DNA of 64,000 nt from Escallonia rubra (taxonomy: Eukaryota > Streptophyta > Magnoliopsida > Escalloniales > Escalloniaceae): positions 620,001 to 684,000 of the forward strand of contig JAVXUO010000911.1 in assembly GCA_033065855.1 (NCBI GenBank). The letters are read 5' to 3'. Of the stretch, positions 32,061 to 64,000 are shown one piece after another. The notes under the pieces are model-generated. The model ran no database searches. It saw nothing but the letters and a program-made list of their open reading frames with translations, and was not told the DNA's origin. How positions within the stretch are numbered: the first letter of the stretch is position 1; the number at the start of each line of letters is the position of its first letter. The position numbers and the translations under genes were made by a program.

Positions 32061-32087
32061 CAAGGCTGTCATACGTTTCCTGCCAGG

Positions 32088-41277: not shown

Positions 41278-41997
41278 ATGGGAGGGGGGTTTGGCCGGAA
41301 AGAACAAATCCCAAGATTTTCTGATTTAGTCTACTTCGTTAAACCAGTCGTCAATCCTTGCGGACCTGCCAAGGGCATACCGACGTCTGGTATCCGTAGA
41401 TTAATCATTCAAAAGGGATAGAGTCCCCGGTTGGACCGTGATCCATTAAGGACGAAGCATAATATAGATAAAAACACAGCGGAATACTGAAAAGATTCGA
41501 AAAAGATAGGGCAAAAACTTAGAGAGAGAGAGAGTCTATGTAGAAGATTTCATTTTTCAAAACTTCAGGATGCTGGATAGGTTTTGACAAGACTTCAATC
41601 TCAGGATGCTAGGTTGAACTACCAAGGTTCTCTTTTAAGGTTATAAACTCAGGGCATGCGTTAGTCTGCGGGCTTTCAACGCCATCACTAGGCAATAACC
41701 CTGTACGACTCGCTCCCACTATTGTTTTGAACCCATAAAGAAGACTCTGGTAATTCGTTTTTAAAGCATAATCGATTTAGATCAGGGAAAACCTGGGGTA
41801 AGCATAATCATAAAAAAAAAAAAAAATATTTTAAAAGAGTCTCTCTTTCCCAAGTAAATGCCATATGATTTTGAATCAAAACATTATTAAGATGTTTTTA
41901 GTCATATCAGACTTAGAAATGTTCCTGTTCGATTCATAGAATGTGTTTCGCCATTGAGCGTTTTCACCCCGAAATGATAAACAAGTTTAAAGAGTAA

Positions 41998-42010
41998 AAC
42001 TTACTGGGAA
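41998..42010 (-). promoter_or_regulatory. Candidate 5' splice site in viral leader, copy A
   Basis: CCCA|GTAAGTTTTAC in viral sense, donor G at 42004, about 125 nt after the predicted start. Copies B and C have CCAA|GTAAGT at 51198 and 56622. The GTAAGT core is the plant consensus and is kept in all three copies. Confidence 0.55.
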
Positions 42011-42048
42011 TAAAGCTTGCTGAGTAACTTGCGCTTGAATCGAAAGGT

Positions 42049-42117
42049 TTAAAGAGAAAGGCAGTTGATTGTAAAGAAGAGAAGGATGTAACAAGAGTAG
42101 CTTGAGAGCTTTTGCAT
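42049..42117 (-). CDS. Leader short ORF, 22 codons, copy A
   Basis: First ATG after the predicted start site (ATG at 42117, stop TAA at 42049-42051), encoding a Ser/Leu/Phe-rich peptide that begins MQKLSSYSCY. Short ORFs near the 5' end of the leader are a regular feature of caulimovirids and take part in ribosome shunting; a role here is inferred only from position. Confidence 0.4.
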   Translation of the reverse strand: MQKLSSYSCYILLFFTINCLSL

Positions 42118-42162
42118 ATATGTTCGCCTTCTTATCTCCCTCTTTACCAGTGAATCTGCCTT

Positions 42163-42171
42163 CTACTTATA
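42163..42171 (-). promoter_or_regulatory. Viral TATA box, copy A
   Basis: TATAAGTAG in viral sense, preceded by CCCCTGTC. The same box is at 51347-51355 (copy B) and 56772-56780 (copy C). It is the expected position for the pregenomic RNA promoter, downstream of the transactivator ORF. Confidence 0.7.
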
Positions 42172-42472
42172 GACAGGGGAAAATTTTAAAGCTATTCTAA
42201 GATATTGCATCTGTACAAGAGGACGAAAAAACTTTAAGTTACTACATTACAAACTACTTTTTGCTAAAGTCTTAAAGTAGTGTCTTAAAGTCTAAAGTTA
42301 AACAGTAGGCTAGGATTCCTTGTCTGATAGCCTTTCTTCGCTGTCCTTTGTCTTCTTCTTATTGCCGACGTGCTTGCTGTCAGTTGTGAGTGCGCCTTTA
42401 CCAAAAGAAGAGATGCTTGCTGTCTGATGTCAGTGTTTCTAAAAGAGATTCTTCTTTGCTGTCAGTTTCTCT

Positions 42473-43750
42473 TTATTTTTTGAGAGGCCTATCTTCGTCT
42501 TGGTCTTCAGTCTTGTCAGAAGAATCACTTGATGTAGCAGCAAAACTGGGGCTCTGTCTTTGAGCATCCTGGAATAGTGAATCTTCAGAGTTGCTAGTTT
42601 CAGCCTTGCACGCTATTGTCTTGTTGACTAATTCTGATAGAACTTTGGCTACTTGAGTTTGTATAGCCAGAGCTTGCCTTTTTGCCTTCTTGCTTTTAAG
42701 TTTTCTTAATTCCATTTTTCCCAAATGGACAGGGGTCTCAGGATTTGATGAGTCTTTACCAGTCACCTGTTGAACTGGACTAGGAATATGTTCTCCCATA
42801 TTCAAAGGATTTTCAGTGTTTTTGAGTAAAACACCAACTACATCAGGACTTGAGGAGTCTTTACCAGTAGCCTGTGATACTGGACTAGGTGCTTTTTCTC
42901 CCGAGCACATGGGTTTTTCAGTAATTTTAAGTAAATTACCAACTGTAACAGGACTTGATTTGTCTTTACCAGAAGCCTGTGAATCTGGACTAGGTGTTCC
43001 TTTAATACCCGAAACACTGGGTTTTGATTGTTTGGAAGTAAGAAGGGTAATATATTTTTGCTTCCAATCATTTGCTTCTAATTCAGCCACCTGCAACTGA
43101 GTTTTAAGCTGGTTAATTTGCAAATTAAAATGTGATTTTTCTAAAGATAAATAATCATGTCTTGATTTTAAATTATTGTGGTTTCTAATTAAGGTATTAC
43201 AGTTCGTACAATCTGCTATAGTGTCTGAAATAGAAGTGTCTTGACATTCTGGGCTAATATAATAATTTGGGCCATAATGGGTCTGCATTAAGGTGGTTGC
43301 TTCTTGAAATGTTATAGTGCCTTTGTACCATGGCAATTTTTCATTTCCGACGCCTCCTACCATCGCTTCTGGGTAATTTTTATAAATTCCCGGAATATTG
43401 CCTTTGAATACACAATAAAAGTTGTATTTTTTAGTGTCTCTTATCTTATGAAAATAATTTGCAACAGCATTGACTGTGTTGACAAACCATCCATTGTCTT
43501 TCTTAACATAGGATTGCCATAAATTGTCTAATAGAGTTCTTTGATCGACTGGAAAAGGACCAATTTTATGATCCTTGACTTGGAATCTTGAACCAGCATG
43601 TAAAACTTCTAAATTATTACCATTGTAGTTTATTCTATTTCTACCCAGGTTGTCTACATAACTTAAGAACTGTGTGGGAAAAATAGGATGTGCCTGGTTT
43701 GTCTGGTTTTGTCTCGTCTGAGCAGAAGATGCTGAAGCTGAAGAAGCCAT
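42473..43750 (-). CDS. Viroplasmin/translational transactivator (TAV-like), copy A
   Basis: 425 aa from the ATG at 43750; the reading frame is open five codons further upstream but only through the splice-acceptor tract, with no ATG. The viroplasmin domain (N-terminal RNase H1-like fold) is at about residues 110-160, with YNFYCVFKGNIPGIYKNYPE and WYKGTITFQEATTLM. A coiled coil follows (about 200-235), then three tandem ~36-residue repeats containing PSP..Q.(T/S)GKD.SSP and LLK.TE.P (about 250-345), a basic stretch (KLKSKKAKRQ) and an acidic Ser-rich tail. In caulimoviruses this protein forms inclusion bodies and lets ribosomes reinitiate on polycistronic RNA. The frame is intact. Confidence 0.85.
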   Translation of the reverse strand: MASSASASSAQTRQNQTNQAHPIFPTQFLSYVDNLGRNRINYNGNNLEVLHAGSRFQVKDHKIGPFPVDQRTLLDNLWQSYVKKDNGWFVNTVNAVANYFHKIRDTKKYNFYCVFKGNIPGIYKNYPEAMVGGVGNEKLPWYKGTITFQEATTLMQTHYGPNYYISPECQDTSISDTIADCTNCNTLIRNHNNLKSRHDYLSLEKSHFNLQINQLKTQLQVAELEANDWKQKYITLLTSKQSKPSVSGIKGTPSPDSQASGKDKSSPVTVGNLLKITEKPMCSGEKAPSPVSQATGKDSSSPDVVGVLLKNTENPLNMGEHIPSPVQQVTGKDSSNPETPVHLGKMELRKLKSKKAKRQALAIQTQVAKVLSELVNKTIACKAETSNSEDSLFQDAQRQSPSFAATSSDSSDKTEDQDEDRPLKK

Positions 43751-43770
43751 CTGAAAATAAAACAAGAAAG
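43751..43770 (-). promoter_or_regulatory. Candidate 3' splice site at TAV start, copy A
   Basis: Viral-sense CTTGTTTTATTTTCAG|ATG: a pyrimidine-rich tract and CAG directly in front of the transactivator ATG. The identical arrangement occurs in copies B (before 52932) and C (before 58357). Confidence 0.55.
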
Positions 43771-43807
43771 TTGTCTGTCTCTAAGGAAATCTGTCTGATT
43801 AGTTTAT

Positions 43808-46800
43808 TTAAGAAAGAATCTTTCTAGATAATAAATCTGCAATGGAGTTATCAACTCCTTTAATATGCTGCCATTCTATTTTGTCTATCCTATAATTGCT
43901 TAAGGTAGTCATAAACTTTAACCATCTATTGGTATATCTAGAGTCTTTATTTTTATTGTATCTTACTATGGCTTCACAGTCTGTCCTAATGCAAAATTCA
44001 TATTTTGAAATTAGGAGTGCCTTGAATTGTTCTAGGGCATAAACTATAGCTAGTAATTCAAAGTCTAAACTAGTTAAGTACTGGTTACTTTCTTTGTATT
44101 TGCCGCTAGAGTACCTGCATATTCTTTCTTCTTTCTTATTGCTATATTTATTTGGTTTGCAGTATAAGACTGCTCCCCAACCGTCTTTGCATCCATCTGT
44201 CTGAACTATTAGATAATCAGTGTCTAGGGGTAAATATAAGTCAGGTAAATTTTTAACTTTTTCTTTTATAGTTTTAACTAACCTAATGTCTTCTGAGTTA
44301 AAATGCCTTTGTCCATTTTTTCTAGTCTTATTGTATAAAGGACCTATTAATTTACTAAGGTCTTTAAAATCCATTCTAGCTTGATATATTAAACCTAAAA
44401 AAGCCTGGATTTGATCTAAACCCTCTAATGTGTCTGGAAAATCTAAAATCTTCTTAGCTATATGTTCTTGTAGTTTTATTTTGCCATTACCTATTTCCAT
44501 TCCTAAAAACTTAATATTAGTTTTAAATAATTCTACTTTCTTTTTACTAAGGATTAACACATGTTTGTCAAAAAGATTAAAAACTAAGTCTAAATGAGAA
44601 AGATGTTCAGTCTCATTCTTACTACAGACTAATATGTCATCTATGTATACTAAGATAAAATTATTATACGGCCTAAAAATATCATCCATCTTACGTTGGA
44701 AGATACTAGGGGCTGTCTTAAGACCAAAAGGCATGACTAACCATTCATATAAGCCTTCTGGAGTAGTAAATGCTGTCCATTTAACGTCTTCTGGCCACAT
44801 CTTGATTTGATAAAATCCAGATTTGCAGTCAAATTTGCTAAATATTTTCTTGTCTTGTATTTTGCTCAAAAGGAATGTCCTATTAGGTATATTATAACTA
44901 TCATCTTTTATATTGTCATTAAGCCTTTTATAATTTATTACCATTCTACTTTTTCCTCTAAGTATCTCTGCATGGTTTCTAACTATAAAAGCTGCCGATC
45001 TATGGGGACTATTGCTTGGTCTAATTACTTTTAAATCTGATAGATCTCTTATGTGCATTTTAAATTCATCAGTGTCTAAACTACTTGCTTCTATATTAGC
45101 TGTCTTGACAATATAGTCAGGGTTTATAAGGTCAAGTTTACAATATATCTGATTTAAATCCCATCTTCTGATAGGATCTTCTCCAATAAAGGGGAGTCTA
45201 TCTATAGCTCTAAGTATATCCTGTTTATTATTAAAGTATTTTCTTAGGTTATAACTTATTTTATATACACTGAAAATGTATAAATCGATGTTATCATCTA
45301 TGCTGTTTTCATTTTCTGTTATGTCTTCTATTTTTACCAAATATTCATTTCCTATGTCTATATTGGTTAAACAGCAATTTGTCTTACCATTACTACAGTC
45401 TTCACATATTTTATTTTTTCCTTTAATATTAGCATATTCCCCACCACGCTTCTGAGCGTACTCTGATGGAGTGTCTATATTAATAGGTGTATGTGTAACA
45501 TTCTGTGCTATCTGAATAAAATCTTTAGTAATAGTTAAAGTATTGTTTTTATTTATTAGAAAATTAATTCCTAAAATGATTTTGCCTTCAGAATGTGGGA
45601 CAGGTGTACAAAAGGCTTGTTTTAGAAAATAGGGTTTGCTTTGTGTATTACATGGTGTGAGAAAGGTAATCGCTACATTCGTAATATATTCAGAATATTT
45701 TATGGGATTTCCTGAAAATCCTACCCCAATTAAGGGTTCTTCAAATGTCTTAATATGTGATTTGTTAACTAAGCTTGGATCTATAACAGTTATAGTGCAA
45801 CCTGTGTCTATTATTGCATTTGTTTCTGTTAATATATTATAATGTCTTATCTGTACTCTAGTAGTTATAAGATTATTAAATCTTGCCTTAGTGCAGAATT
45901 TTTCTATCTTAAAGTCCTTTTGTATTTGTTGAAGTAAATGCTTATTATTTCCTATGATTAATTCATTTTCATTTCTTTGCTTTAAGGTTTCTTCTATCTG
46001 AATCACCTTTTGTTCTAAGAATTCTAATCTTCTATTGACATTTTTATCATAATATGTGTCTGTATATGTTTTTTGTTCTATTGGTTTTGTAATTTCTATG
46101 TTATATTTTTGTTTTATGCATTTTACACATGCTTCTATATGACATATATTACATTTGCATCTAACTCTAATTGCAGGAAACCAATTACATATATAGCAAG
46201 GTGTTGTGTCTATACCTTTACCTATTTGCCATTGATGTATACAGTCTTCTTCTAATGCTAGTTTGTCAGCTAAAGGTTTAAACATAAAATTGTATATTTC
46301 TGTATTCTTTAGAGAGTTTATAAATGTATCTAGTTGGTCTGTTGTTTCTATTGGAAAGTTTTCTTCCTCTTCATCACTACTTATAGAGAGATTGTCTTCC
46401 ATGTATTCTTCTATTGATTTAATACTGTATATACTTTCAGTATCACTAAGTGTTTCATCTACTTCTAATAGGTCTTCATTTGTATTGTTAACTATCATTG
46501 CTTTAAAATTATTATTGTTATGTCTTCTAGGGCAATTAGAACTTAAATGGTCTGGTTCTCCACAGGAGTAACAAGTAATTTTATTTTTGTATATTCTCCT
46601 AGTGTCATATTTCCTAACATGTTTAGGATTTCAGAAAGGTTTTCTTGCTTTGCTTTTCCTTAAATAATAATTCTTTCTAGGTTGCCTATACTTTCTATGG
46701 GGCTTTTTATTATATTTTGGTCTAGATTCCTCTTGACCATAATGTTGTGGAGTGTATATTTCTTTACAAAAACTAGTTTCATTCTTTAATTGTCTAGCTA

Positions 46801-48157
46801 TTTGTATATTAGTGCATTTAGATACTAATATTTCTATAACATATTCGAAAACTGTGCCTAAAGAAGGTGTATATGTAGCGTTAAGCTTTTTAATTGTCTC
46901 ATATATTTCTCTTCCTAAAGCGCCTGGTAATTTGTTTAGAAATTTATCTATAACAGTTGGTTTATAAATATTACCACTTTGTGAAGCAAAGTAATAGTAT
47001 TCTTGCATAAAAGGTTTTATGTTATGCCAGCTATATAAATGTACTTGTTCTAATTTTCTAGCTGCTTCTGTTTGTATTAAGGTATCTCCTGTATTAGGAT
47101 TTCTACCTGTTAAAATTAATTGTATAGTGTTAACAAAATTATAAGGATTAGGTCCTAAGTCTGCCATTTGTTTTAAATCATCTGGATAAGTTTTTTGCCA
47201 TTCTTCGAAATTAGCTTTAGCTATTGGTCCTAAAAACTGTATCATATACCTTATCATTTCTTCGCCTGTTTCTAAATTGTCAGATTGTTTAGTTACAAAG
47301 TTTGATACAACTGCATCTTTCCATACTTGTATATAATTGTTTCTTTGTTGAGGATCTACTGCTGTTATATTTAAAATAAAGGGATCTGATGCCTTTTGAA
47401 TTTTAAAGTTTTGTTCTAATGGATGCCTTTTACCTCTAGGTTTATAATTAGGTCTATCTGATCTGTTGTGTTCTATGTCTACACTTCTTCTTGGTATATT
47501 ACCATAAGGATAACTTGGTCTTTCACCTCGTTGAGTGGTATAAAATTTACTTCCATAATCGTTTCTATTATTAGTAACGCCTGAAGTTTCTCCTTCTTCC
47601 ATCAGAAAATAGGGTACTTCATTCATTAGATTATATTTAACATTGTTTGTTGTAATTTGAGTATCTATGGAACTTGTTTCTAATTGTTCTAGATCTACTT
47701 GTATCTGTTCTAATTTTTTAGATTCTAGGTCTTCTTCTATAGAATCTATTATAGTTTCCATTTCTGTTTCTAGCAATATGTTTTGTTCATATAGAGTCTT
47801 ATGTTCCATTCTAATCTGTTCTATTTCTAGTATAGCAGTGTTTATTTTATAATCTAATTCTGTCTTATAATTTTTTAGAGGCGCAGTTATGTTTATGCTC
47901 GGAGTTATATGTGAAGGATAAAGGCTGCTTATATTTTGATCTTTTGAGCTGTCTGGAATAGTAAAATCTAAATTGGGTTCTATAATGTATTCAGGTTGAT
48001 TAAATATATCTAAATTGTCTTCATTTTCAGTAATATTTAGGAATTTTTGTAATTGTTCTATACTTAAGCCTTGTCCTATAAATGTAGATCCTATGGATTG
48101 ATTTAGAATTTTTATGTCTAAGTCTTTTAAGATATCAAAGTCTTGGTAATTATACAT
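43808..48157 (-). pseudogene. CP-PR-RT-RNase H polyprotein, copy A, one in-frame stop
   Basis: Same 1,449-codon frame as in copy C but interrupted by TGA at 46631-46633, where copy C has a Leu codon (residue 509), just before the CCHC knuckle. The 508-codon capsid part and the downstream part (896 codons from an internal ATG at 46498) are otherwise open. Protease DTG, RT YIDD and RNase H residues are kept. A cluster of changes against the other copies lies at 45230-45290. A readthrough or a truncated product is conceivable, but it is scored here as a broken gene. Confidence 0.85.
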
Positions 48158-49118
48158 TCTCTTCGTCTTCTGTGATATCTTGATCTTCTACCTGATTATT
48201 GGCCTCTACGAAATTGGTAAATCTAACAGATCTTCTTCCTGATGCATCTATGTACCACATGTTATCTGTTGGTACTATGCTATTATTAGAACTAGTAGTT
48301 AAAATCTTATCTACTATCCATTCTTGTCCTGCATTTTCTAAGGAATCTACCTTGTAATGGTGTACAAGTCTAATACCTCGATTTATAATAAATTTTGCAG
48401 TGTCATCTATGGTTAACTTGTATCCTACTTGACTACTTTGTGTTAATTTTCCTATAAAGGTGGTGCATACTAAAAGGTTTTTGCCTTGTTGAAAATCTTT
48501 ATATCCTTTTGTCATTATTTTTACTTTTATGTTTTTGGCAAAATCTTTTGTATTAATACAAAAATCTGGTGCACAGTAAAAGATGCCGCCATTGTTGTTC
48601 ATGTCAACTTCTATAGCTCCTATGATAGCTTGTTCACTAGAGAATCTATCATCTACTATAGCTAGGAATACTTTAGCTCCTGTATCTCTTCTAGTTAGGC
48701 CTTTTACTCCTATTACTATTAATCCTATATGTGTTAAGTTAAAATTCCCTCTGGTTAATTCTATTTCAGAGTCTGGGTGTATTAAATTGATACTGGCTAT
48801 TTCTTCGCCTACACATCTATTTTGTGTTTCCCTATAATGCATAAATAGTCTTGTTTGATTAAAATGAGAATTATGTTGATATAGGATTTGTGGAGATATT
48901 AAATCTAGTCTGTTTTGTCTAAATTGTTGTATTTGACTATCAATATCTATTATTTGTTCTAAAGAGATTATTGGAATAGCAGGTGTTCTAAATAATCTAA
49001 GAACTCTATTTTGTAATGTGTTTTCATTACGTCTTCTAGTTTCTGTAGCTAAAACTTCTGTTCTAGTTCTATCTTCTATATTTCCTCTTCCTACAATACG
49101 ACTATTGTGGCTTGTCAT
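48150..49118 (-). CDS. Cell-to-cell movement protein, copy A
   Basis: 322 aa. Recognised as a 30K-superfamily caulimovirid movement protein by the central block LTRGNFNLTHIGLIVIGVKG, RDTGAKVFLAIVDDRF and the following beta-rich core to about residue 240. The family increases plasmodesmal passage and forms tubules. The start ATG lies inside the end of the 114-aa ORF (17-nt overlap), and its stop overlaps the polyprotein start (ATGTATAA, 8 nt). Separate MP and polyprotein ORFs differ from badnaviruses, where MP is the N-terminus of the polyprotein. Confidence 0.8.
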   Translation of the reverse strand: MTSHNSRIVGRGNIEDRTRTEVLATETRRRNENTLQNRVLRLFRTPAIPIISLEQIIDIDSQIQQFRQNRLDLISPQILYQHNSHFNQTRLFMHYRETQNRCVGEEIASINLIHPDSEIELTRGNFNLTHIGLIVIGVKGLTRRDTGAKVFLAIVDDRFSSEQAIIGAIEVDMNNNGGIFYCAPDFCINTKDFAKNIKVKIMTKGYKDFQQGKNLLVCTTFIGKLTQSSQVGYKLTIDDTAKFIINRGIRLVHHYKVDSLENAGQEWIVDKILTTSSNNSIVPTDNMWYIDASGRRSVRFTNFVEANNQVEDQDITEDEENV

Positions 49119-49446
49119 ATGTTAAAAAATTTAAGTCTTTTTTCCTTTTAGGTTTGTCTACTGTTATTTTTTCTAATTTTTTGCATAAGCTTTCTACGTC
49201 TATTTGTGTCTCAACCTTAGTTTTGTCTTGGTGTAATTCTATTTTATGTATTAGAATATCTAGCTTTTCTAAACATCTAATTAATAACATTATAATAACA
49301 TTGTTTTGTTTTCTATTTGTGAGTTCATTAGGAGTACCTACTGTATTTTTTATTAAGCCTTCTGCTGGGCTTAAGTAATATGATGTCTGATCTATAAAAA
49401 CCTTTTTATAGTCTGGATAATTTTCGTAATCGTTGTTATGATTCAT
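49102..49446 (-). CDS. 114-aa viral ORF, copy A
   Basis: ATG 49446 overlaps the stop of the 93-aa ORF (ATGA). It has an N-terminal Tyr/Asn-rich segment (YYLSPAEGLIKNTVGTP), a helical middle (IIMLLIRCLEKLDILIHKI) and a basic end (VDKPKRKKDLNF). No family was assigned. Position and size fit the small pre-MP ORFs of bacilliform caulimovirids; the basic tail would suit a nucleic-acid or virion-associated role, which is inference. Confidence 0.7.
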   Translation of the reverse strand: MNHNNDYENYPDYKKVFIDQTSYYLSPAEGLIKNTVGTPNELTNRKQNNVIIMLLIRCLEKLDILIHKIELHQDKTKVETQIDVESLCKKLEKITVDKPKRKKDLNFLTYDKPQ

Positions 49447-49724
49447 TTATATTCTAAACCTTGTATATTTAAATAATGCCTTAAATTTTCTTCGATTTTA
49501 ATAGTTTGTCTCTCGAGTCTATCTATAGTAATTGTGATTTTTTCTAACTCTGTAGTTATTTTGCTAAATTTGTCTAATATTATGTCTATTTTAGACTCAT
49601 TCTGTTTAGAATTGTCTGAAGATTGCATACAAACTTCTTTCATATAATCTAGGTTTTCTCTAATTATTTTTAAGCTTTTATTGTCTGTTTGAAGATTTAA
49701 ATATTCTATTTTGTTTGCATTCAT
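49443..49724 (-). CDS. 93-aa coiled-coil viral ORF, copy A (virion-associated protein candidate)
   Basis: ATG 49724 follows the stop of the 42-aa ORF directly. About residues 40-85 form a heptad pattern (IIILDKFSKI-like, ITTELEKITITIDRLERQ, IKIEENLRHY). Virion-associated proteins of the family are short coiled-coil proteins encoded next to MP or CP, so this is the likeliest candidate; sequence alone does not prove it. Confidence 0.6.
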   Translation of the reverse strand: MNANKIEYLNLQTDNKSLKIIRENLDYMKEVCMQSSDNSKQNESKIDIILDKFSKITTELEKITITIDRLERQTIKIEENLRHYLNIQGLEYK

Positions 49725-49853
49725 CTATATTCCACTAAAAGAATTGTCTAGATTAGCCAGGGCTTCATCATCCCATGGATAATCATTACTATCTTCATCA
49801 TAATTTAAATAGTCTTCATAATCTAAGTCTGATTCTAACTGTAAACTATTCAT
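49725..49853 (-). CDS. 42-aa acidic viral ORF, copy A (probably 5'-truncated)
   Basis: ATG 49853 to TAG 49725-49727. Strongly acidic (SDLDYEDYLNYDEDSNDYPW). The frame is open for about 23 codons upstream of the ATG, back to a TAA at the 16-bp repeat, so the original ORF may have been longer and lost at the rearranged edge. Confidence 0.5.
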   Translation of the reverse strand: MNSLQLESDLDYEDYLNYDEDSNDYPWDDEALANLDNSFSGI

Positions 49854-49931
49854 ATTGTTTGTGATTTCTAAAGCGACGTTTGTAGGTATCCTTGAATTGT
49901 TTAATTCTAGTGTTTGATTAGAGTTTGGTTC

Positions 49932-49995
49932 TAATTAGGCCTGTATCTAATTAGGCCTGTATCTAATTAGGCCTGTATCTAATTAGGCCTGTATC
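49932..49995. repeat. 16-bp tandem repeat x4 at edge of copy A
   Basis: Four units of CTAATTAGGCCTGTAT in a row, between the acidic ORF and a displaced MP fragment. It is not in the visible part of copy C. Confidence 0.85.
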
Positions 49996-49998
49996 TTC

Positions 49999-50334: not shown

Positions 50335-50335
50335 C

Positions 50336-50473: not shown

Positions 50474-50474
50474 A

Positions 50475-52932: not shown

Positions 52933-52989
52933 CTGAAAATAAAACAAGAAAGTTGTCTGTCTCTAAGGAAATCTGTCTGATTAGTTAAT

Positions 52990-55935: not shown

Positions 55936-57079
55936 GATTTTCTGATTTTGTCTACTTCGTTAAACCAGTCGTCAATCCTTGCGGACCTGCCAAGGGCATA
56001 CCGACGTCTGGTATCCGTAGATTAATCATTCAAAAGGGATAGAGTCCCCGGTTGGACCGTGATCCATTAAGGACGAAGCATAATATAGATAAAAACACAG
56101 CGGAATACTGAAAAGATTCGAAAAAGATAGGGCAAAAACTTAGAGAGAGAGAGTCTATGTAGAAGATTTCATTTTTCAAAACTTCAGGATGCTGGATAGG
56201 TTTTGACAAGACTTCAATCTCAGGATGCTAGGTTGAACTACCAAGGTTCTCTTTTAAGGTTATAAACTCAGGGCATGCGTTAGTCTGCGGGCTTTCAACG
56301 CCATCACTAGGCAATAACCCTGTACGACTCGCTCCCACTATTGTTTTGAACCCATAAAGAAGACTCTGGTAATTCGTTTTTAAAGCATAATCGATTTAGA
56401 TCAGGGAAAACCTGGGGTAAGCATAATCATTTATCAAAAAAAAAATTTTTAAAAGAGTCTCTCTTTCCCAAGTAAATGCCATATGATTTTGAATCAAAAC
56501 ATTATTAAGATGTTTTTAGTCATATCAGACTTAGAAATGTTCCTGTTCGATTCATAGAATGTGTTTCGCCATTGAGCGTTTTCACCCCGAAATGATAAAC
56601 AAGTTTAAAGAGTAATACTTACTTGGAATAAAGCTTGCTGAGTAGCTTGCCCTTGAATCGAAAGGTTTAGTGGGAAAGGCTGTTGAGTCTAAAGAAGAGA
56701 GGGTTGTAGCAAGCGTAGCTTGAGAGCTTTTGCATATATGTTCCCACCTTTTTTACAAGTGAATCTGCCTTCTACTTATAGACAGGGGAAAAATTAAAAA
56801 TATTCTAAGACATTGCATCTGTACAAGAGGACGAAAAACTTTAAGTTACTACATTACAAACTACTTTTAGCTAAAGTCTTAAAGTAGTGTCTTAAAGTCT
56901 AAAGTTAAACAGTAGGCTAGGATTCCTTGTCTGATAGCCTTTCTTAGCTGTCCTTTGTCTTCTTCTTATTGCCGACGTGCTTGCTGTCAGTTGTGAGTGC
57001 GCCTTTACTAAAAGAAGAGATGCTTGCTGTCTGATGTCAGTGTTTCTGAAAAAGATTCTTCTTTGCTGTCAGTTTTTCT
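55899..57079 (-). promoter_or_regulatory. Viral intergenic region and leader, copy C
   Basis: Same layout as copy A: TATA 56772-56780, splice donor G at 56622. At the left end a partial duplication places GTTTGGCCGGAAAGAACAAA twice (from 55873 and 55909). Its promoter would read into copy B's chimeric frame. Confidence 0.7.
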
Positions 57080-58357
57080 TTATTTTTTGAGAGGTCTATC
57101 TTCGTCTTGGTCTTCAGTCTTGTCAGAAGAATCACTTGATGTAGCAGCAAAACTGGGGCTCTGTCTTTGAGCATCCTGGAATAGTGAATCTTCAGAGTTG
57201 CTAGTTTCAGCCTTGCACGCTATTGTCTTGTTGACTAATTCTGATAGAACTTTGGCTACTTGAGTTTGTATAGCCAGAGCTTGCCTTTTTGCCTTCTTGC
57301 TTTTAAGTTTTCTTAATTCCATTTTTCCCAAATGGACAGGGGTCTCAGGATTTGATGAGTCTTTACCAGTCACCTGTTGAACTGGACTAGGAATATGTTC
57401 TCCTCTATTCAAAGGATTTTCAGTGTTTTTGAGTAAAACACCAACTATATCAGGACTTGATGAGTCTTTACCAGTAGCCTGTGATACTGGACTAGGTGCT
57501 TTTTCTCCCGAGCACATGGGTTTTTCAGTAATTTTAAGTAAATTACCAACTGTAACAGGACTTGATTTGTCTTTACCAGAAGCCTGTGAATCTGGACTAG
57601 GTGTTCCTTTAATACCCGAAACACTGGGTTTTGATTGTTTGGAAGTAAGAAGGGTAATATATTTTTGCTTCCAATCATTTGCTTCTAATTCAGCCACCTG
57701 CAACTGAGTTTTAAGCGTGTTAATTTGCAAATTAAAATGTGATTTTTCTAAAGATAAATAATCATGTCTTGATTTTAAATTATTGTGGTTTCTAATTAAG
57801 GTATTACAGTTCGTACAATCTGCTATAGTGTCTGAAATAGAAGTGTCTTGACATTCTGGGCTAATATAATAATTTGGGCCATAATGGGTCTGCATTAAGG
57901 TGGTGGCTTCTTGAAATGTTATAGTGCCTTTGTACCATGGCAATTTTTCATTTCCGACGCCTCCTACCATCGCTTCTGGGTAATTTTTATAAATTCCCGG
58001 AATATTGCCTTTGAATACACAATAAAAGTTGTATTTTTTAGTGTCTCTTATCTTATGAAAATAATTTGCAACAGCATTGACTGTGTTGACAAACCATCCA
58101 TTGTATTTCTTAACATAGGATTGCCATAAATTATCTAATAGAGTTCTTTGATCGACTGGAAAAGGACCAATTTTATGATCCTTGACTTGGAATCTTGAAC
58201 CAGCATGTAAAACTTCTAAATTATTACCATTGTAGTTTATTCTATTTCTACCCAGGTTGTCTACATAACTTAAGAACTGTGTGGGAAAAATAGGATGTGC
58301 CTGGTTTGTCTGGTTTTGTCTCGTCTGAGCAGAAGATGCTGAAGCTGAAGAAGCCAT
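57080..58357 (-). CDS. Viroplasmin/translational transactivator (TAV-like), copy C
   Basis: 425 aa from ATG 58357. Same domain order as copy A: viroplasmin domain about residues 110-160, coiled coil, three PSP/GKD/LLK repeats, KSKKAKRQ basic patch, acidic tail ending DQDEDRPLKK. Only a handful of substitutions against copy A (for example Asp to Tyr near residue 85). The acceptor tract TTTTATTTTCAG directly precedes the ATG. Confidence 0.85.
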   Translation of the reverse strand: MASSASASSAQTRQNQTNQAHPIFPTQFLSYVDNLGRNRINYNGNNLEVLHAGSRFQVKDHKIGPFPVDQRTLLDNLWQSYVKKYNGWFVNTVNAVANYFHKIRDTKKYNFYCVFKGNIPGIYKNYPEAMVGGVGNEKLPWYKGTITFQEATTLMQTHYGPNYYISPECQDTSISDTIADCTNCNTLIRNHNNLKSRHDYLSLEKSHFNLQINTLKTQLQVAELEANDWKQKYITLLTSKQSKPSVSGIKGTPSPDSQASGKDKSSPVTVGNLLKITEKPMCSGEKAPSPVSQATGKDSSSPDIVGVLLKNTENPLNRGEHIPSPVQQVTGKDSSNPETPVHLGKMELRKLKSKKAKRQALAIQTQVAKVLSELVNKTIACKAETSNSEDSLFQDAQRQSPSFAATSSDSSDKTEDQDEDRPLKK

Positions 58358-58414
58358 CTGAAAATAAAACAAGAAAGTTGTCTGTCTCTAAGGAAATTTG
58401 TCTGATTAGTTAAT

Positions 58415-61400
58415 TTAAGAAAGAATCTTTCTAGATAATAAATCTGCAATGGAGTTATCAACTCCTTTAATATGCTGCCATTCTATTTTGTCTATCCTAT
58501 AATTGCTTAAGGTAGTCATAAACTTTAACCATCTATTGGTATATCTAGAGTCTTTATTTTTATTGTATCTTACTATGGCTTCACAGTCTGTCCTAATGCA
58601 AAATTCATATTTTGAAATTAGGAGTGCCTTGAATTGTTCTAGGGCATAAACTATAGCTAGTAATTCAAAGTCTAAACTAGTTAAGTACTGGTTACTTTCT
58701 TTGTATTTGCCGCTAGAGTACCTGCATATTCTTTCTTCTTTCTTATTGCTATATTTATTTGGTTTGCAGTATAAGACTGCTCCCCAACCGTCTTTGCATC
58801 CATCTGTCTGAACTATTAGATAATCAGTGTCTAGGGGTAAATATAAGTCAGGTAAATTTTTAACTTTTTCTTTTATAGTTTTAACTAACCTAATGTCTTC
58901 TGAGTTAAAATGCCTTTGTCCATTTTTTCTAGTCTTATTGTATAAAGGACCTATTAATTTACTAAGGTCTTTGAAATACATTCTAGCTTGATTTATTAAT
59001 CCTAAAAACGCCTGGATTTGTTTTAAACCTTCTAATTTGTCTGGAAAATCTAAAATCTTCTTAGCTATATGTTCTTGTAGTTTTATTTTGCCATTACCTA
59101 TTTCCATTCCTAAAAACTTAATATTAGTTTTAAATAATTCTACTTTCTTTTTACTAAGGATTAAACCATGTTTGTCAAAAAGTTTAAAAACTAAGTCTAA
59201 ATGAGAAAGATGTTCAGTCTCATTCTTACTACAGACTAATATGTCATCTATGTATACTAAGATAAAATTATTATACGGCCTAAAAATATCATCCATCTTA
59301 CGTTGGAAGATACTAGGGGCTGTCTTAAGACCAAAAGGCATGACTAACCATTCATATAAGCCTTCTGGAGTAGTAAATGCTGTCCATTTAACGTCTTCTG
59401 GCCACATCTTGATTTGATAAAATCCAGATTTGCAGTCAAATTTGCTAAATATTTTCTTGTCTTGTATTTTGCTAAAAAGAAATGTTTTTTTAGGTATATT
59501 ATAACTATCATCTTTTATATTGTCATTAAGCCTTTTATAATTTATTACCATTCTACTTTTTCCTCTAAGTATCTCTGCATGGTTTCTAACTATAAAAGCT
59601 GCCGATCTATGGGGACTATTGCTTGGTCTAATTACTTTTAAATCTGATAGATCTCTTATGTGCATTTTAAATTCATCAGTGTCTAAACTACTTGCTTCTA
59701 TATTAGCTGTCTTGACAATATAGTCAGGGTTTATAAGGTCAAGTTTACAATATATCTGATTTAAATCCCATCTTCTGATAGGATCTTCTCCAATAAAGGG
59801 GAGTCTATCTATAGCTCTAAGAATATCATGTTTATTATTAAAGTAATATATTAGATTATAAATTATTTTATCTAAACCGTAAATGTCTAAATCTATGTTA
59901 TCATCTATGCTGTTTTCATTTTCTGTTATGTCTTCTATTTTTACCAAATATTCATTTCCTATGTCTATATTGGTTAAACAGCAATTTGTCTTACCATTAC
60001 TACAGTCTTCACATATTTTATTTTTTCCTTTAATATTAGCATATTCCCCACCACGCTTCTGAGCGTACTCTGATGGAGTGTCTATATTAATAGGTGTATG
60101 TGTAACATTCTGTGCTATCTGAATAAAATCTTTAGTAATAGTTAAAGTATTGTTTTTATTTATTAGAAAATTAATTCCTAAAATGATTTTGCCTTCAGAA
60201 TGTGGGACAGGTGTACAAAAGGCTTGTTTTAGAAAATAGGGTTTGCTTTGTGTATTACATGGTGTGAGAAAGGTAATCGCTACATTCGTAATATATTCAG
60301 AATATTTTATGGGATTTCCTGAAAATCCTACACCAATTAAGGGTTCTTCAAATGTCTTAATATGTGATTTGTTAACTAAGCTTGGATCTATAACAGTTAT
60401 AGTGCAACCTGTGTCTATTATTGCATTTGTTTCTGTTAATTTGTTATAATGTCTTATCTGTACTCTAGTAGTTATAAGATTGTTAAATCTTGCCTTAGTG
60501 CAGAATTTTTCTATTTTAAAGTCTTTTTGTACTTGTTGAATTAATTGCTTATTATTTCCTATGATTAATTCATCTTCATTTCTTTGCTTTAAGGTTTCTT
60601 CTATCTGAATCACCTTTTGTTCTAAGAATTCTAATCTTCTATTAACATTTTTATCATAATATGTGTCTGTATATGTTTTTTGTTCTATTGGTTTTGTAAT
60701 TTCTATGTTATATTTTTGTTTTATGCATTTTACACATGCTTCTATATGACATATATTACATTTGCATCTAACTCTAATTGCAGGAAACCAATTACATATA
60801 TAGCAAGGTGTTGTGTCTATACCTTTACCTATTTGCCATTGATGTATACAGTCTTCTTCTAATGCTAGTTTGTCAGCTAAAGGTTTAAACATAAAATTGT
60901 ATATTTCTGTATTCTTTAGAGAGTTTATAAATGTATCTAGTTGGTCTGTTGTTTCTATTGGAAAGTTTTCTTCCTCTTCATCACTACTTATAGAGAGATT
61001 GTCTTCCATGTATTCTTCTATTGATTTAATACTGTATATACTTTCAGTATCACTAAGTGTTTCATCTACTTCTAATAGGTCTTCATTTGTATTGTTAACT
61101 ATCATTGCTTTAAAATTATTATTGTTATGTCTTCTAGGGCAATTAGAACTTAAATGGTCTGGTTCTCCACAGGAGTAACAAGTAATTTTATTTTTGTATA
61201 TTCTCCTAGTGTCATATTTCCTAACATGTTTAGGGTTTAAGAAAGGTTTTCTTGCTTTGCTTTTCCTTAAATAATAATTCTTTCTAGGTTGCCTATACTT
61301 TCTATGGGGCTTTTTATTATATTTTGGTCTAGATTCCTCTTGACCATAATGTTGTGGAGTGTATATTTCTTTACAAAAACTAGTTTCATTCTTTAATTGT

Positions 61401-62764
61401 CTAGCTATTTGTATATTAGTGCATTTAGATACTAATATTTCTATAACATATTCGAAAACTGTGCCTAAAGAAGGTGTATATGTAGCGTTAAGCTTTTTAA
61501 TTGTCTCATATATTTCTCTTCCTAAAGCGCCTGGTAATTTATTTAGAAATTTATCTATAACAGTTGGTTTATAAATATTACCACTTTGTGAAGCAAAGTA
61601 ATAGTATTCTTGCATAAAAGGTTTTATGTTATGCCAGCTATATAAATGTACTTGTTCTAATTTTCTAGCTGCTTCTGTTTGTATTAAGGTATCTCCTGTA
61701 TTAGGATTTCTACCTGTTAAAATTAATTGTATAGTGTTAACAAAATTATAAGGATTAGGTCCTAAGTCTGCCATTTGTTTTAAATCATCTGGATAAGTTT
61801 TTTGCCATTCTTCGAAATTAGCTTTAGCTATTGGTCCTAAAAACTGTATCATATACCTTATCATTTCTTCGCCTGTTTCTAAATTGTCAGATTGTTTAGT
61901 TATAAAGTTTGCTACAACTGCATCTTTCCATACTTGTATATAATTGTTTCTTTGTTGAGGATCTACTGCTGTTATATTTAAAATAAACGGATCTGATGCC
62001 TTTTGTATTTTAAAGTTTTGTTCTAATGGATGCCTTTTACCTCTAGGTTTATAATTAGGTCTATCTGATCTATTGTGTTCTATGTCTACACTTCTTCTTG
62101 GTATATTGCCATAAGGATAACTTGGTCTTTCATCGCGTTGAGTGGTATAAAATTTACTTCCATAATTATTTCTATTATTAGTAACGCCTGAAGTTTCTCC
62201 TTCTTCCATCAGGAAATAGGGTACTTCATTCATTAGATTATACTTAACATTGTTTGTTGTGATTTGAGTATCTATGGAACTTGTTTCTAATTGTTCTAGA
62301 TCTACTTGTATCTGTTCTAATTTTTTAGATTCTAGGTCTTCTTCTATAGAATCTATTATAGTTTCCATTTCTGTTTCTAGCAATATGTTTTGTTCATATA
62401 GAGTCTTATGTTCCATTCTAATCTGTTCTATTTCTAGTATAGCAGTGTTTATTTTATAATCTAATTCTGTCTTGTAATTTTTTACAGGCTCAGTTCTGTC
62501 TATGCTCGGAGTTATATGCGAAGGATTAAGGCTGCTTATATTTAGATCTTTTAAGCTGTCTGGAATAGTAAAATCTAAATTGGGTTCTATAATGTATTCT
62601 GGTTGATTAAATATATCTAAATTGTCTTCATTTTCAGTAATATTTAGGAATTTTTGTAATTGTTCTATACTTAAGCCTTGTCCTATAAATGTAGATCCTA
62701 TGGATTGATTTAGAATTTTTATGTCTAAGTCTTTTAAGATATCAAAGTCTTGGTAATTATACAT
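58415..62764 (-). CDS. CP-protease-RT-RNase H polyprotein, copy C, intact
   Basis: 1,449 aa from ATG 62764. Coiled-coil/acidic N-terminus (about 100-165); capsid core about 250-460 (VWKDAVVANF, GEEMIRYMIQFLGPIAKANF, LYSWHNIKPFMQEYY); basic stretch 478-528; CCHC knuckle CYSCGEPDHLSSNC at 529-542; acidic segment; second Cys array with exact spacing C-X2-C-X11-C-X2-C-X4-C-X2-C at 654-680; aspartic protease DTG at 784-786; RT motifs about 1050-1200 with YIDD at 1171-1174; RNase H acidic residues near 1320, 1367, 1393 and 1436. The start overlaps the MP stop by 8 nt. Fusion of capsid to pol with a separate MP is unlike both Caulimovirus and Badnavirus. Confidence 0.92.
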   Translation of the reverse strand: MYNYQDFDILKDLDIKILNQSIGSTFIGQGLSIEQLQKFLNITENEDNLDIFNQPEYIIEPNLDFTIPDSLKDLNISSLNPSHITPSIDRTEPVKNYKTELDYKINTAILEIEQIRMEHKTLYEQNILLETEMETIIDSIEEDLESKKLEQIQVDLEQLETSSIDTQITTNNVKYNLMNEVPYFLMEEGETSGVTNNRNNYGSKFYTTQRDERPSYPYGNIPRRSVDIEHNRSDRPNYKPRGKRHPLEQNFKIQKASDPFILNITAVDPQQRNNYIQVWKDAVVANFITKQSDNLETGEEMIRYMIQFLGPIAKANFEEWQKTYPDDLKQMADLGPNPYNFVNTIQLILTGRNPNTGDTLIQTEAARKLEQVHLYSWHNIKPFMQEYYYFASQSGNIYKPTVIDKFLNKLPGALGREIYETIKKLNATYTPSLGTVFEYVIEILVSKCTNIQIARQLKNETSFCKEIYTPQHYGQEESRPKYNKKPHRKYRQPRKNYYLRKSKARKPFLNPKHVRKYDTRRIYKNKITCYSCGEPDHLSSNCPRRHNNNNFKAMIVNNTNEDLLEVDETLSDTESIYSIKSIEEYMEDNLSISSDEEEENFPIETTDQLDTFINSLKNTEIYNFMFKPLADKLALEEDCIHQWQIGKGIDTTPCYICNWFPAIRVRCKCNICHIEACVKCIKQKYNIEITKPIEQKTYTDTYYDKNVNRRLEFLEQKVIQIEETLKQRNEDELIIGNNKQLIQQVQKDFKIEKFCTKARFNNLITTRVQIRHYNKLTETNAIIDTGCTITVIDPSLVNKSHIKTFEEPLIGVGFSGNPIKYSEYITNVAITFLTPCNTQSKPYFLKQAFCTPVPHSEGKIILGINFLINKNNTLTITKDFIQIAQNVTHTPINIDTPSEYAQKRGGEYANIKGKNKICEDCSNGKTNCCLTNIDIGNEYLVKIEDITENENSIDDNIDLDIYGLDKIIYNLIYYFNNKHDILRAIDRLPFIGEDPIRRWDLNQIYCKLDLINPDYIVKTANIEASSLDTDEFKMHIRDLSDLKVIRPSNSPHRSAAFIVRNHAEILRGKSRMVINYKRLNDNIKDDSYNIPKKTFLFSKIQDKKIFSKFDCKSGFYQIKMWPEDVKWTAFTTPEGLYEWLVMPFGLKTAPSIFQRKMDDIFRPYNNFILVYIDDILVCSKNETEHLSHLDLVFKLFDKHGLILSKKKVELFKTNIKFLGMEIGNGKIKLQEHIAKKILDFPDKLEGLKQIQAFLGLINQARMYFKDLSKLIGPLYNKTRKNGQRHFNSEDIRLVKTIKEKVKNLPDLYLPLDTDYLIVQTDGCKDGWGAVLYCKPNKYSNKKEERICRYSSGKYKESNQYLTSLDFELLAIVYALEQFKALLISKYEFCIRTDCEAIVRYNKNKDSRYTNRWLKFMTTLSNYRIDKIEWQHIKGVDNSIADLLSRKILS

Positions 62765-63725
62765 TCTCTTCTTCTTCTGTGATATCTTGATCTTCTACCT
62801 GATTATTGGCCTCTACGAAATTGGTAAATCTAACAGATCTTCTTCCTGATGCATCTATGTACCACATGTTATCTGTTGGTACTATGCTATTATTAGAACT
62901 AGTAGTTAAAATCTTATCTACTATCCATTCTTGTCCTGCATTTTCTAAGGAATCTACCTTGTAAGGCGGTAAAAGTCTAATACCTCGATTTATAATAAAT
63001 TTTGCAGTGTCATCTATGGTTAACTTGTATCCTACTTGACTACTTTGTGTTAATTTTCCTATAAAGGTGGTGCATACTAAAAGGTTTTTGCCTTGTTGAA
63101 AATCTTTATATCCTTTTGTCATTATTTTTACTTTTATGTTTTTGGCAAAATCTTTTGTATTAATACAAAAATCTGGTGCACAGTAAAAGATGCCGCCATT
63201 GTTGTTCATGTCAACTTCTATAGCTCCTATGATAGCTTGTTCACTAGAGAATCTATCATCTACTATAGCTAGGAATACTTTAGCTCCTGTATCTCTTCTA
63301 GTTAGGCCTTTTACTCCTATTACTATTAATCCTATATGTGTTAAGTTAAAATTCCCTCTGGTTAATTCTATTTCAGAGTCTGGGTGTATTAAATTGATAC
63401 TGGCTATTTCTTCGCCTACACATCTATTTTGTGTTTCCCTATAATGCATAAATAGTCTTGTTTGATTAAAATGAGAATTATGTTGATATAGGATTTGTGG
63501 AGATATTAAATCTAGTCTGTTTTGTCTAAATTGTTGTATTTGACTATCAATATCTATTATTTGTTCTAAAGAGATTATTGGAATAGCAGGTGTTCTAAAT
63601 AATCTAAGAACTCTATTTTGTAATGTGTTTTCATTACGTCTTCTAGTTTCTGTAGCTAAAACTTCTGTTCTAGTTCTATCTTCTATATTTCCTCTTCCTA
63701 CAATACGACTATTGTGGCTTGTCAT
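62757..63725 (-). CDS. Cell-to-cell movement protein, copy C
   Basis: 322 aa from ATG 63725, intact and almost identical to copy A; differences include the segment after NRGIRL (LPPYKV against VHHYKV) and one acidic residue near the C-terminus. 30K-superfamily core as in copy A. It overlaps the 114-aa ORF by 17 nt and the polyprotein by 8 nt. Confidence 0.8.
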   Translation of the reverse strand: MTSHNSRIVGRGNIEDRTRTEVLATETRRRNENTLQNRVLRLFRTPAIPIISLEQIIDIDSQIQQFRQNRLDLISPQILYQHNSHFNQTRLFMHYRETQNRCVGEEIASINLIHPDSEIELTRGNFNLTHIGLIVIGVKGLTRRDTGAKVFLAIVDDRFSSEQAIIGAIEVDMNNNGGIFYCAPDFCINTKDFAKNIKVKIMTKGYKDFQQGKNLLVCTTFIGKLTQSSQVGYKLTIDDTAKFIINRGIRLLPPYKVDSLENAGQEWIVDKILTTSSNNSIVPTDNMWYIDASGRRSVRFTNFVEANNQVEDQDITEEEENV

Positions 63726-64000
63726 ATGTTAAAAAATTTAAGTCTTTTTTCCTTTTAGGTTTGTCTACTGTTATTTTTTCTAATTTTTTGCATAAGCTTT
63801 CTACGTCTATTTGTGTCTCAACCTTAGGTTTGTCTAGGAGTAAATCTATTTTATGTATTAGAATATCTAGCTTTTCTAAACATCTAATTAATAACATTAT
63901 AATAACATTGTTTTGTTTTCTATTTGTGAGTTCATTAGGAGTACCTACTGTATTTTTTATTAAGCCTTCTGCTGGACTTAGGTAATATGATGTCTGATCT
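63709..64000 (-). CDS. 114-aa viral ORF, copy C, truncated by window
   Basis: Same ORF as 49102-49446, open to the window edge. It retains CLEKLDILIHKI and KPKRKKDLNF but differs in the middle (LLLDKPKV against LHQDKTKV). The N-terminal ~18 residues lie outside the window. Confidence 0.7.
   Translation of the reverse strand, partial: DQTSYYLSPAEGLIKNTVGTPNELTNRKQNNVIIMLLIRCLEKLDILIHKIDLLLDKPKVETQIDVESLCKKLEKITVDKPKRKKDLNFLTYDKPQ

What the first reader, a model, noticed from the sequence alone, without database searches (positions are those of the whole stretch)
41278..64000. A caulimovirid with a mosaic genome plan: badnavirus-like front and zinc array, plus a transactivator ORF
Seen: small ORFs, separate MP, a single CP-PR-RT-RNase H polyprotein, then a viroplasmin-domain ORF. 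Known: Caulimovirus has separate CP and Pol ORFs plus a transactivator; Badnavirus has MP, CP and Pol fused and no transactivator; Tungrovirus makes a fourth ORF from a spliced RNA. This layout matches none of these exactly, so the virus may belong to an undescribed or poorly described genus.
Basis: partly seen in the sequence, partly recalled or inferred. Interest (0 to 1): 0.9.

Follow-up and report, generated by a model that had tools for sequence, protein, structure and literature searches.

The report
Endogenous plant virus, half-split gene plan
Three broken copies of a plant DNA virus sit side by side in this plant chromosome, and their gene layout is an unusual in-between: a translation-helper gene and a separate movement gene, yet coat and replication enzymes still made as one long protein.

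Summary
The layout is real, but it is three rearranged, 97.9-98.3% identical copies of one endogenous caulimovirid on the minus strand (41277-64000), not one genome. Copy A shows a movement protein (322 aa), a CP-zinc-PR-RT-RNase H polyprotein (1449 aa) starting 8 nt before the MP stop, and a 425-aa ORF whose transactivator-type domain is supported by homology to endogenous relatives from rice and wheat. Copy C adds two small ORFs and a truncated third upstream. No tRNA-Met primer site was found, so the genome's start is missing. RT-RNase H trees put it on the Badnavirus side of the family but outside Badnavirus (AU p 0.016). The badnavirus-type zinc array and the transactivator both recur among relatives there, so retained old characters explain the plan better than recombination. 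Nearest published plans: Dioscovirus (transactivator, MP still fused) and Solendovirus (CP separate). New variant of a known kind; a new genus is possible, not shown.

The parts
55898..64000 (-). Copy A of the endogenous virus; runs off the window at its 5' side; every gene visible in it is open
   Evidence: 98.3% identical to copy C over 8117 columns; ORFs
50474..55673 (-). Copy B, 3' part only (polyprotein remainder, ORF5 in two pieces, 3' region)
   Evidence: 98.2% identical to copy A over 5202 columns; ORF list; 2 new stops in its ORF5
41277..49930 (-). Copy C (5' limit approximate); polyprotein frame interrupted between 46498 and 46631; the only copy in the window that shows ORF1 and the truncated upstream frame
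55672..55874 (-). 203-bp extra fragment of the RNase H end of the polyprotein between copies B and A
   Evidence: 98.5% identical to 58424-58626
50002..50334 (-). 333-bp extra fragment of the MP gene at the 5' end of copy C
   Evidence: 99.4% identical to 48670-49002
50334..50473 (+). 140-bp inverted fragment of the polyprotein gene (CP part) between copies C and B
   Evidence: 99.3% identical to 61947-61808 reversed
49725..49934 (-). Truncated upstream frame (called ORF0 here), 69 open codons, acidic end; its TAG directly precedes the ORF1 ATG
   Evidence: sequence, frame reading
49443..49724 (-). ORF1, 93 aa, no accepted domain
49102..49446 (-). ORF2, 114 aa, overlaps ORF1 by ATGA, no accepted domain
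62757..63725 (-). MP ORF of copy A, 322 aa, 30K movement protein domain at 63078-63530
   Evidence: PF01107 E 3.7e-11
48150..49118 (-). MP ORF of copy C, 322 aa, same start and stop arrangement as copy A
   Evidence: 5 differences in 969 nt
58415..62764 (-). Polyprotein ORF of copy A, 1449 aa; its ATG lies in an 8-nt overlap with the MP end. CP domain 61349-61684, CCHC 61139-61180, zinc array 60725-60805, protease 60140-60424, RT 59099-59566, RNase H 58517-58825
   Evidence: read and searched in three separate pieces; coordinates converted by hand
57080..58357 (-). ORF5 of copy A, 425 aa: viroplasmin/transactivator-type domain (57767-58195), then a leucine-zipper-like stretch and a tail with a repeated unit
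   Evidence: repeat 57345-57603
42473..43750 (-). ORF5 of copy C, 425 aa
   Evidence: 10 differences from copy A
56667..56735 (-). Leader short ORF, 22 codons in all three copies; a predicted stem of about 124 nt opens 1 nt after its stop in all three; TATA-like box at 56772-56780
55898..56780 (-). 3' intergenic region / start of the pregenomic leader, folds better than 20 of 20 shuffles (z -2.6; copy C z -3.3)

Best explanation
This is an endogenous caulimovirid: DNA of a plant pararetrovirus was captured, at least once, next to an AT-rich microsatellite in a plant chromosome and now lies there as three rearranged, partly decayed tandem pieces. The parent virus belonged to the half of the RT tree that holds Badnavirus and endogenous relatives from rice and wheat, but not to Badnavirus itself. 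Its RNA carried at least three small ORFs, a separate MP, a fused CP-PR-RT-RNase H polyprotein and a transactivator-type ORF. Most likely mechanism: ribosomes pass the structured leader by shunting after the 22-codon short ORF (inferred), then translate the consecutive ORFs by transactivator-assisted reinitiation at tight stop/start overlaps (inferred from domain, overlaps and internal AUGs); the protease cuts the polyprotein, RT and RNase H copy the RNA (domains shown, activity inferred), and MP serves cell-to-cell movement (domain shown, function inferred). The unusual plan is best read as an intermediate: the transactivator is present, and only MP stands apart from the rest of the MP-CP-Pol set.
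For: Domains and order; zinc array exact; ORF5 homologous to the segment after RNase H in endogenous relatives P0018 (wheat), P0038 (rice) and P0100 (62 bits, 0 of 2000 shuffles; P0100 passes Pfam Cauli_VI at 2.6e-10). Tree: window with P0028 and P0045 (86; 95/85), inside a 36-row clade at 100/100 that also holds rice/wheat rows and Badnavirus, apart from Caulimovirus and rose yellow vein virus. Endogenous state: three copies with rearrangements, interrupted frames, microsatellite at the left junction; AT repeats also flank 93% of ERTBV ends in rice (PMC526188, passages). Reinitiation over leaky scanning: besides own and next start codons, ORF1, ORF2 and MP hold 4, 5 and 13 further ATGs ([quoted passage not shown] MP/polyprotein arrangement the same in copies A and C.
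Against: No primer-binding site and no complete front, so the true ORF number and genome length are unknown. Stand-alone MP and ORF5 found no homolog in the protein search (0 of 1051 candidates at E 1e-4; 0 of 3167 at 1e-3), so the separateness of MP rests on this one locus. Two neighbours in the window's part of the tree, P0033 (Taraxacum) and P0079 (Olea), have 326 and 204 residues after RNase H without a transactivator match, though these are automatic gene models. Of the relatives said to carry the domain, only P0100 passes the Pfam cut-off; P0038 (0.0045) and P0018 (0.059) do not, and P0013 has no Cauli_VI match listed. Support for the window's place is moderate, and a grouping with the rice/wheat rows is not rejected (p 0.14). 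Translation, processing and movement were not tested.
Confidence: 0.7

Rival explanations
1. It is an ordinary member of an already named endogenous group (Yendovirus, or the lumped OTU 'Unclassified V. vinifera + Yendovirus + Orendovirus'), whose plan may already stand in supplements that I could not read.
For: RT domain 62.4% identical to rice P0013 and wheat P0018 and 68% to the unnamed rows P0017 and P0030; a 62% threshold defines genus-level OTUs in PMC13308828 (passages). Yendovirus-01 is reported only in Liliopsida, including Oryza and Hordeum (PMC9794742, passages), so the rice/wheat rows are probably Yendovirus; that label is my inference. Grouping with them not rejected, p 0.14.
Against: The window sits with P0028/P0045 rather than with the rice/wheat rows. 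The identity threshold does not transfer cleanly: strawberry vein banding virus, a Caulimovirus, still scores 56% with my domain limits.
Confidence: 0.45
2. The parent was a Dioscovirus-like virus with MP fused to CP-Pol, and the separate MP is a mutation of this lineage fixed before or at integration.
For: Dioscovirus has two small ORFs with atga overlap, a fused MP-CP-PR-RT-RH ORF and a transactivator ORF (PMC6135502, passages). Copies A and C are 98.3% identical, so they are not two independent witnesses. MP differences between A and C show no sign of constraint (0 of 4 changed codons synonymous).
Against: MP is an intact 322-codon frame and the polyprotein has its own ATG inside an 8-nt overlap, in the style of the neighbouring junctions (4 nt between ORF1 and ORF2, 17 nt between ORF2 and MP). 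Shared by both copies that cover it.
Confidence: 0.17
3. A recombinant mosaic: a badnavirus-like front and polyprotein joined to a caulimovirus-like transactivator.
For: The feature set mixes traits that reviews assign to different groups (PMC5902531, passages; PMC4926197, passage).
Against: The transactivator segment follows RNase H in 4 of 120 listed RT relatives (P0013, P0018, P0038, P0100; three of them built the profile); P0013 and P0018 lie in the rice/wheat clade and P0100 in another branch of the same half (P0038 was not in the trees). The zinc array is in 5 of 7 listed relatives with at least 350 residues before RT; P0009 and P0023 are in the rice/wheat clade, P0028 is the window's neighbour, P0037 sits beside Badnavirus (P0063 not in the trees). 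But no MP or transactivator tree could be built, so differing histories were not really tested.
Confidence: 0.12

Closest known systems
Dioscovirus (Dioscorea nummularia-associated virus)
   Same: Two small ORFs, atga overlap between them, badnavirus-style polyprotein, a transactivator ORF just after it (PMC6135502, passages)
   Different: MP fused into the polyprotein there, separate here; at least one more small frame upstream here; polyprotein-transactivator spacing 1 nt there, 57 nt here. Sequences not compared (no Dioscovirus sequence available)
Endogenous caulimovirids annotated in rice and wheat (P0013, P0038, P0018), probably Yendovirus
   Same: RT domain about 62% identical; transactivator-type segment after RNase H; zinc array in the related rows P0009, P0023 and P0063
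   Different: Window falls outside their clade with moderate support; in the deposited gene models the transactivator is joined to Pol; their MP is unknown to me
Solendovirus-type elements (TVCV, LycEPRV)
   Same: Separate MP and a transactivator ORF; described as intermediate between caulimoviruses and badnaviruses (PMC1899175, passages)
   Different: CP is a separate first ORF there (CP, MP, POL, TAV); here CP is fused with Pol and follows MP. RT not compared
Badnavirus
   Same: CX2CX11CX2CX4CX2C second Cys motif, CP-PR-RT-RH in one ORF, small front ORFs, same half of the RT tree
   Different: Transactivator present, MP separate, front ORFs with internal AUGs, RT outside the Badnavirus clade (AU p 0.0156)
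Caulimovirus
   Same: Separate MP and a transactivator ORF at the 3' end
   Different: CP and Pol fused here, badnavirus-type zinc array, RT in the other half of the tree
Sweet potato pakakuy virus (Badnavirus)
   Same: Its ORF III is also reported split (PMC5902531, passage)
   Different: No transactivator; RT within Badnavirus (row P0050)

Membership tests
Caulimoviridae | 30K MP, CP, aspartic protease, RT with RNase H | tested here: met
   All above Pfam cut-offs in copy A
Caulimoviridae | tRNA-Met primer-binding site | tested here: not met
   None in the viral span at up to 2 mismatches over 12 nt; best 14-mer match there 10 of 14. The start of the genome is probably outside the window, so this speaks for truncation rather than against membership
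Badnavirus | RT-RNase H inside the genus | tested here: not met
   Outside a Badnavirus clade supported at 100; union with 10 rows taken as Badnavirus AU p 0.0156
Badnavirus | MP, CP and Pol in one ORF, no transactivator | tested here: not met
   Separate MP and ORF5 transactivator homolog
Badnavirus | Second Cys motif CX2CX11CX2CX4CX2C | tested here: met
   Exact match at 60725-60805; but also in rows outside the Badnavirus clade, so not diagnostic
Caulimovirus | Separate CP and Pol ORFs; RT in the genus | tested here: not met
   One ORF; RT apart from SVBV and FMV
Dioscovirus | Fused MP-CP-PR-RT-RH ORF followed by transactivator ORF | tested here: not met
   MP is in its own frame in copies A and C; transactivator part met
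Dioscovirus | RT in the genus | not testable with these tools
   No row named Dioscovirus was among the 120 listed
Solendovirus (and Cavemovirus) | Order CP, MP, POL, TAV in four ORFs (PMC1899175, passages) | tested here: not met
   CP domain lies in the Pol ORF, after MP; RT placement not tested
Tungrovirus / Orendovirus | MP-CP-RT polyprotein, no recognisable transactivator (PMC5902531, passages) | tested here: not met
   Separate MP, transactivator homolog present; RT placement not tested
Yendovirus (endogenous OTU) | RT clusters with the OTU | tested here: inconclusive
   62.4% RT identity to rice/wheat rows that are probably Yendovirus; no labelled sequence to test with
Wendovirus (endogenous OTU) | Two aspartic proteases in two ORFs, MP joined to one of them (PMC9794742, passages) | tested here: not met
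   Protease matches in the polyprotein piece only, none in the MP ORF
Transactivator/viroplasmin (TAV) proteins | RNase H1 N-terminal-like (Cauli_VI) domain | tested here: met
   Below Pfam cut-off directly, but homologous to tails of relatives of which P0100 passes it
Transactivator/viroplasmin (TAV) proteins | Promotes reinitiation after long ORFs | not testable with these tools
   Needs an experiment

The most novel reading that the evidence does not exclude
A genus-level lineage of Caulimoviridae caught half-way between the family's two main organisations: it carries the transactivator and has MP as its own ORF, while CP, protease, RT and RNase H stay fused and keep the zinc array once called exclusive to Badnavirus. 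It would show that the transactivator was present before the Badnavirus line, was lost there, and that polyprotein splitting went stepwise, MP first.
Probability: 0.33. Interest if true: 0.65.

Novelty: new variant of a known kind. Interest (0 to 1): 0.47.

Why it matters
A review groups the family into viruses with a transactivator and without an MP-CP-RT polyprotein, and viruses with that polyprotein and no transactivator, and proposes that gaining the transactivator allowed the polyprotein to be split (PMC5902531, passages). This element, like Dioscovirus, fits neither group cleanly and, unlike Dioscovirus, shows one cut already made, so it gives the proposal a concrete intermediate to test. 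It also shows that the second Cys motif described as found only in badnaviruses (PMC4926197, passage) is shared by lineages outside the Badnavirus clade.

Tried and rejected
Two scans of viral contigs gave no relative, so no relative's ORF order could be read from DNA. Structure prediction of ORF5 was not available. The search of the window's own assembly did not complete, so host, copy number and the missing 5' end stay open. Primer-site search failed. Leader folding is suggestive only: the outermost pairs in copy C use a stretch that copies A and B lack, and the stem beside the short ORF is only about 124 nt. Codon comparison between copies is mixed: RT-RNase H A/B 12 of 21 changed codons synonymous (neutral 0.19-0.33, p 1e-4 to 0.02) and polyprotein N piece A/C 13 of 24 (p 2e-4 to 0.02) suggest changes made under selection in the virus, ORF5 A/C is 4 of 8 (not tested), but RT-RNase H A/C 8 of 26, MP A/C 0 of 4, and ORF5 A/B 9 of 27 with 2 new stops do not (not corrected for several tests). 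I therefore claim nothing firm about whether the copies are separate virus variants. Identity thresholds from the literature were not used to assign a genus, because a Caulimovirus row also passes 55% with my domain limits.


Full report
WHAT IS THERE. The right third of the window (41277-64000) holds three copies of one virus-like sequence, all on the minus strand: copy A 55898-64000 (runs off the window), copy B 50474-55673 (3' part only) and copy C 41277 to about 49930. They are 97.9-98.3% identical pairwise. Between them lie a 203-bp extra piece of the RNase H end, a 333-bp extra piece of MP and a 140-bp inverted piece of the CP region. All three copies stop at the same viral position (41277, 50474, 55898). 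Copy C is followed there by an AT/TATG microsatellite, the kind of neighbour that flanks 93% of the ERTBV ends in rice (PMC526188, passages). The polyprotein of copy C and ORF5 of copy B are interrupted; every gene visible in copy A is open. This is an endogenous caulimovirid and not an assembled virus genome. Two-kb windows inside the viral genes have 29-30% GC, those that include intergenic parts 33-38%, and the flank (1-40000) 34-47%.

GENE ORDER. Reading the minus strand: a truncated frame ending at 49725; ORF1 (93 aa); ORF2 (114 aa, ATGA overlap with ORF1); MP (322 aa, 17-nt overlap with ORF2); polyprotein (1449 aa, 8-nt overlap with MP); ORF5 (425 aa, 57 nt after the polyprotein). Pfam finds MP, CP domain, CCHC knuckle, aspartic protease, RT and RNase H above cut-off; ORF1 and ORF2 have no accepted match. 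Between knuckle and protease there is an exact CX2CX11CX2CX4CX2C array, which a review gives as the second Cys motif found only in badnaviruses (PMC4926197, passage).

IS ORF5 A TRANSACTIVATOR. Pfam alone is not enough (Cauli_VI E 0.0082, below cut-off). Relatives found with RT carry, after RNase H, a segment that matches ORF5: wheat P0018, rice P0038 and P0100. A profile from these three hits ORF5 at 62 bits, E 4.7e-18 in a list of 2007, with 0 of 2000 shuffled ORF5 and 0 of the 6 other window proteins. P0100 passes Cauli_VI at 2.6e-10; P0038 (0.0045) and P0018 (0.059) stay below the cut-off, and P0013 has no Cauli_VI match listed. After the domain come a leucine-zipper-like stretch (weak HALZ match 0.0074) and a repeat-bearing tail. 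Homology to transactivators is well supported; the activity is inferred.

WHERE IT BELONGS. The protein search with the RT-RNase H piece matched 1442 proteins, of which 120 were listed. The first tree used 100 of 121 rows (the window plus the 120 listed; rows with short coverage dropped, 7 short ones kept by hand, P0071 dropped by hand). The second used 49 hand-picked rows. Both put the window with P0028 and P0045 (86; 95/85). In the second, the window's half (36 rows, 100/100) also holds a rice/wheat clade and a Badnavirus clade, and the other half holds strawberry vein banding and figwort mosaic viruses (Caulimovirus) and rose yellow vein virus (Rosadnavirus). Holding the window together with 10 rows taken as Badnavirus is rejected (p 0.0156); of those rows P0039, P0050 and P0104 bear virus names in the listing and the rest were labelled by me from their place in the first tree. 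Holding it with the rice/wheat rows is not rejected (p 0.14). The groups were named after the first tree had been seen. Missing from both trees, as far as names show: Tungrovirus, Dioscovirus, Vaccinivirus, Cavemovirus, Solendovirus, Soymovirus, Ruflodivirus, Petuvirus and any sequence labelled Yendovirus or another endogenous group.

MOSAIC OR RETAINED. The transactivator segment occurs in 4 of the 120 listed relatives (P0013, P0018, P0038, P0100); three of the four built the profile, and P0013 is a rice sequence much like P0038, so this is a census by one profile and not four independent finds. P0013 and P0018 lie in the rice/wheat clade and P0100 in another branch of the window's half. Of 26 rows with at least 100 residues after RNase H, 23 have no match; by my count on the tree, 18 of these 23 are in the Badnavirus clade, and the other five are P0033, P0071, P0079, P0120 and P0125. 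P0033 and P0079 are neighbours of the window, which speaks against universal presence there, unless their gene models are faulty. The zinc array occurs in 5 of 7 rows with at least 350 residues before RT (P0009, P0023, P0028, P0037, P0063; not P0043 or the rose virus P0117), in several branches of the same half. Both traits thus look older than the split between the window's line, the rice/wheat line and Badnavirus, and their combination needs no recombination; a recombinant origin is not excluded, because MP and transactivator trees could not be built. Most listed proteins are too short to show either trait, and gene models such as P0018 and P0100 may join ORFs that the virus kept apart.

HOW IT LIKELY WORKED. 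Caulimovirids without a transactivator reach their third ORF by leaky scanning through front ORFs free of internal AUGs; those with one are thought to reinitiate after long ORFs (PMC5902531, passages). Here ORF1, ORF2 and MP hold 6, 7 and 15 ATGs, of which 4, 5 and 13 are neither their own nor the next ORF's start; letter shuffles give 4.6, 5.4 and 17.6, so there is no marked depletion. A scanning ribosome would hardly reach the polyprotein. With tight stop/start overlaps and a transactivator homolog, reinitiation is the better reading. Upstream, a TATA-like box is followed by a 22-codon short ORF that keeps its length in all three copies, and in all three a predicted stem of about 124 nt opens 1 nt after its stop; the region folds better than 20 of 20 shuffles in copies C and A (z -3.3 and -2.6). 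That fits the shunt arrangement described for the family, but the stem is short and the evidence is modest.

KNOWN OR NEW. Dioscovirus has the nearest published plan, with MP still fused (PMC6135502, passages). Solendovirus-type elements have CP, MP, POL and TAV in four ORFs and were already called intermediate between caulimoviruses and badnaviruses (PMC1899175, passages). Orendoviruses lack a recognisable transactivator (PMC5902531, passages), Wendoviruses have two proteases (PMC9794742, passages), and the cotton element has separate CP and RT ORFs (PMC10458927, passages). I found no text with MP separate, CP-Pol fused and a transactivator in the searches (listings) and the passages read. 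Figures and supplements, where the Capsicum Yendovirus genome would stand (PMC5766536, passages and two sections), were not readable, and the plans of Soymovirus, Rosadnavirus, Ruflodivirus and Vaccinivirus were not read in detail. Verdict: a new variant of a known kind, possibly a new genus-level lineage, with the separate MP resting on one locus.

Noticed in passing
28898-35486: A nested palindrome of about 6.6 kb centred near 32074 (arms 97-99% complementary) with Ulp1/Peptidase_C48 ORFs in both arms (30570-31214 minus, 32674-33519 plus): a fold-back transposon, possibly of a Mutator-like kind that carries Ulp1 genes (recalled), or an assembly fold-back.
   Followed up: partly
14350-28093: Further sets of long inverted repeat arms (90-98% complementary), including a smaller palindrome at 15381-18164.
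   Followed up: no
38615-40338: Satellite-like units of 188-193 bp in two runs beside the viral array, with related pieces at 29235, about 34557-35137 and 36765.
   Followed up: no
49931-50001: Short tandem units (GATACAGGCCTAATTA type) exactly at the broken 5' end of copy C.
   Followed up: no
41277-55898: All three copies end at the same viral position (41277, 50474, 55898), and beside copy A a partial 24-nt repeat of that end follows. This could mark a fixed DNA end such as the strand discontinuity at the (missing) primer site.
   Followed up: partly
28587-28799: GC-rich 71-bp tandem unit with CCACGTGG boxes.
   Followed up: no
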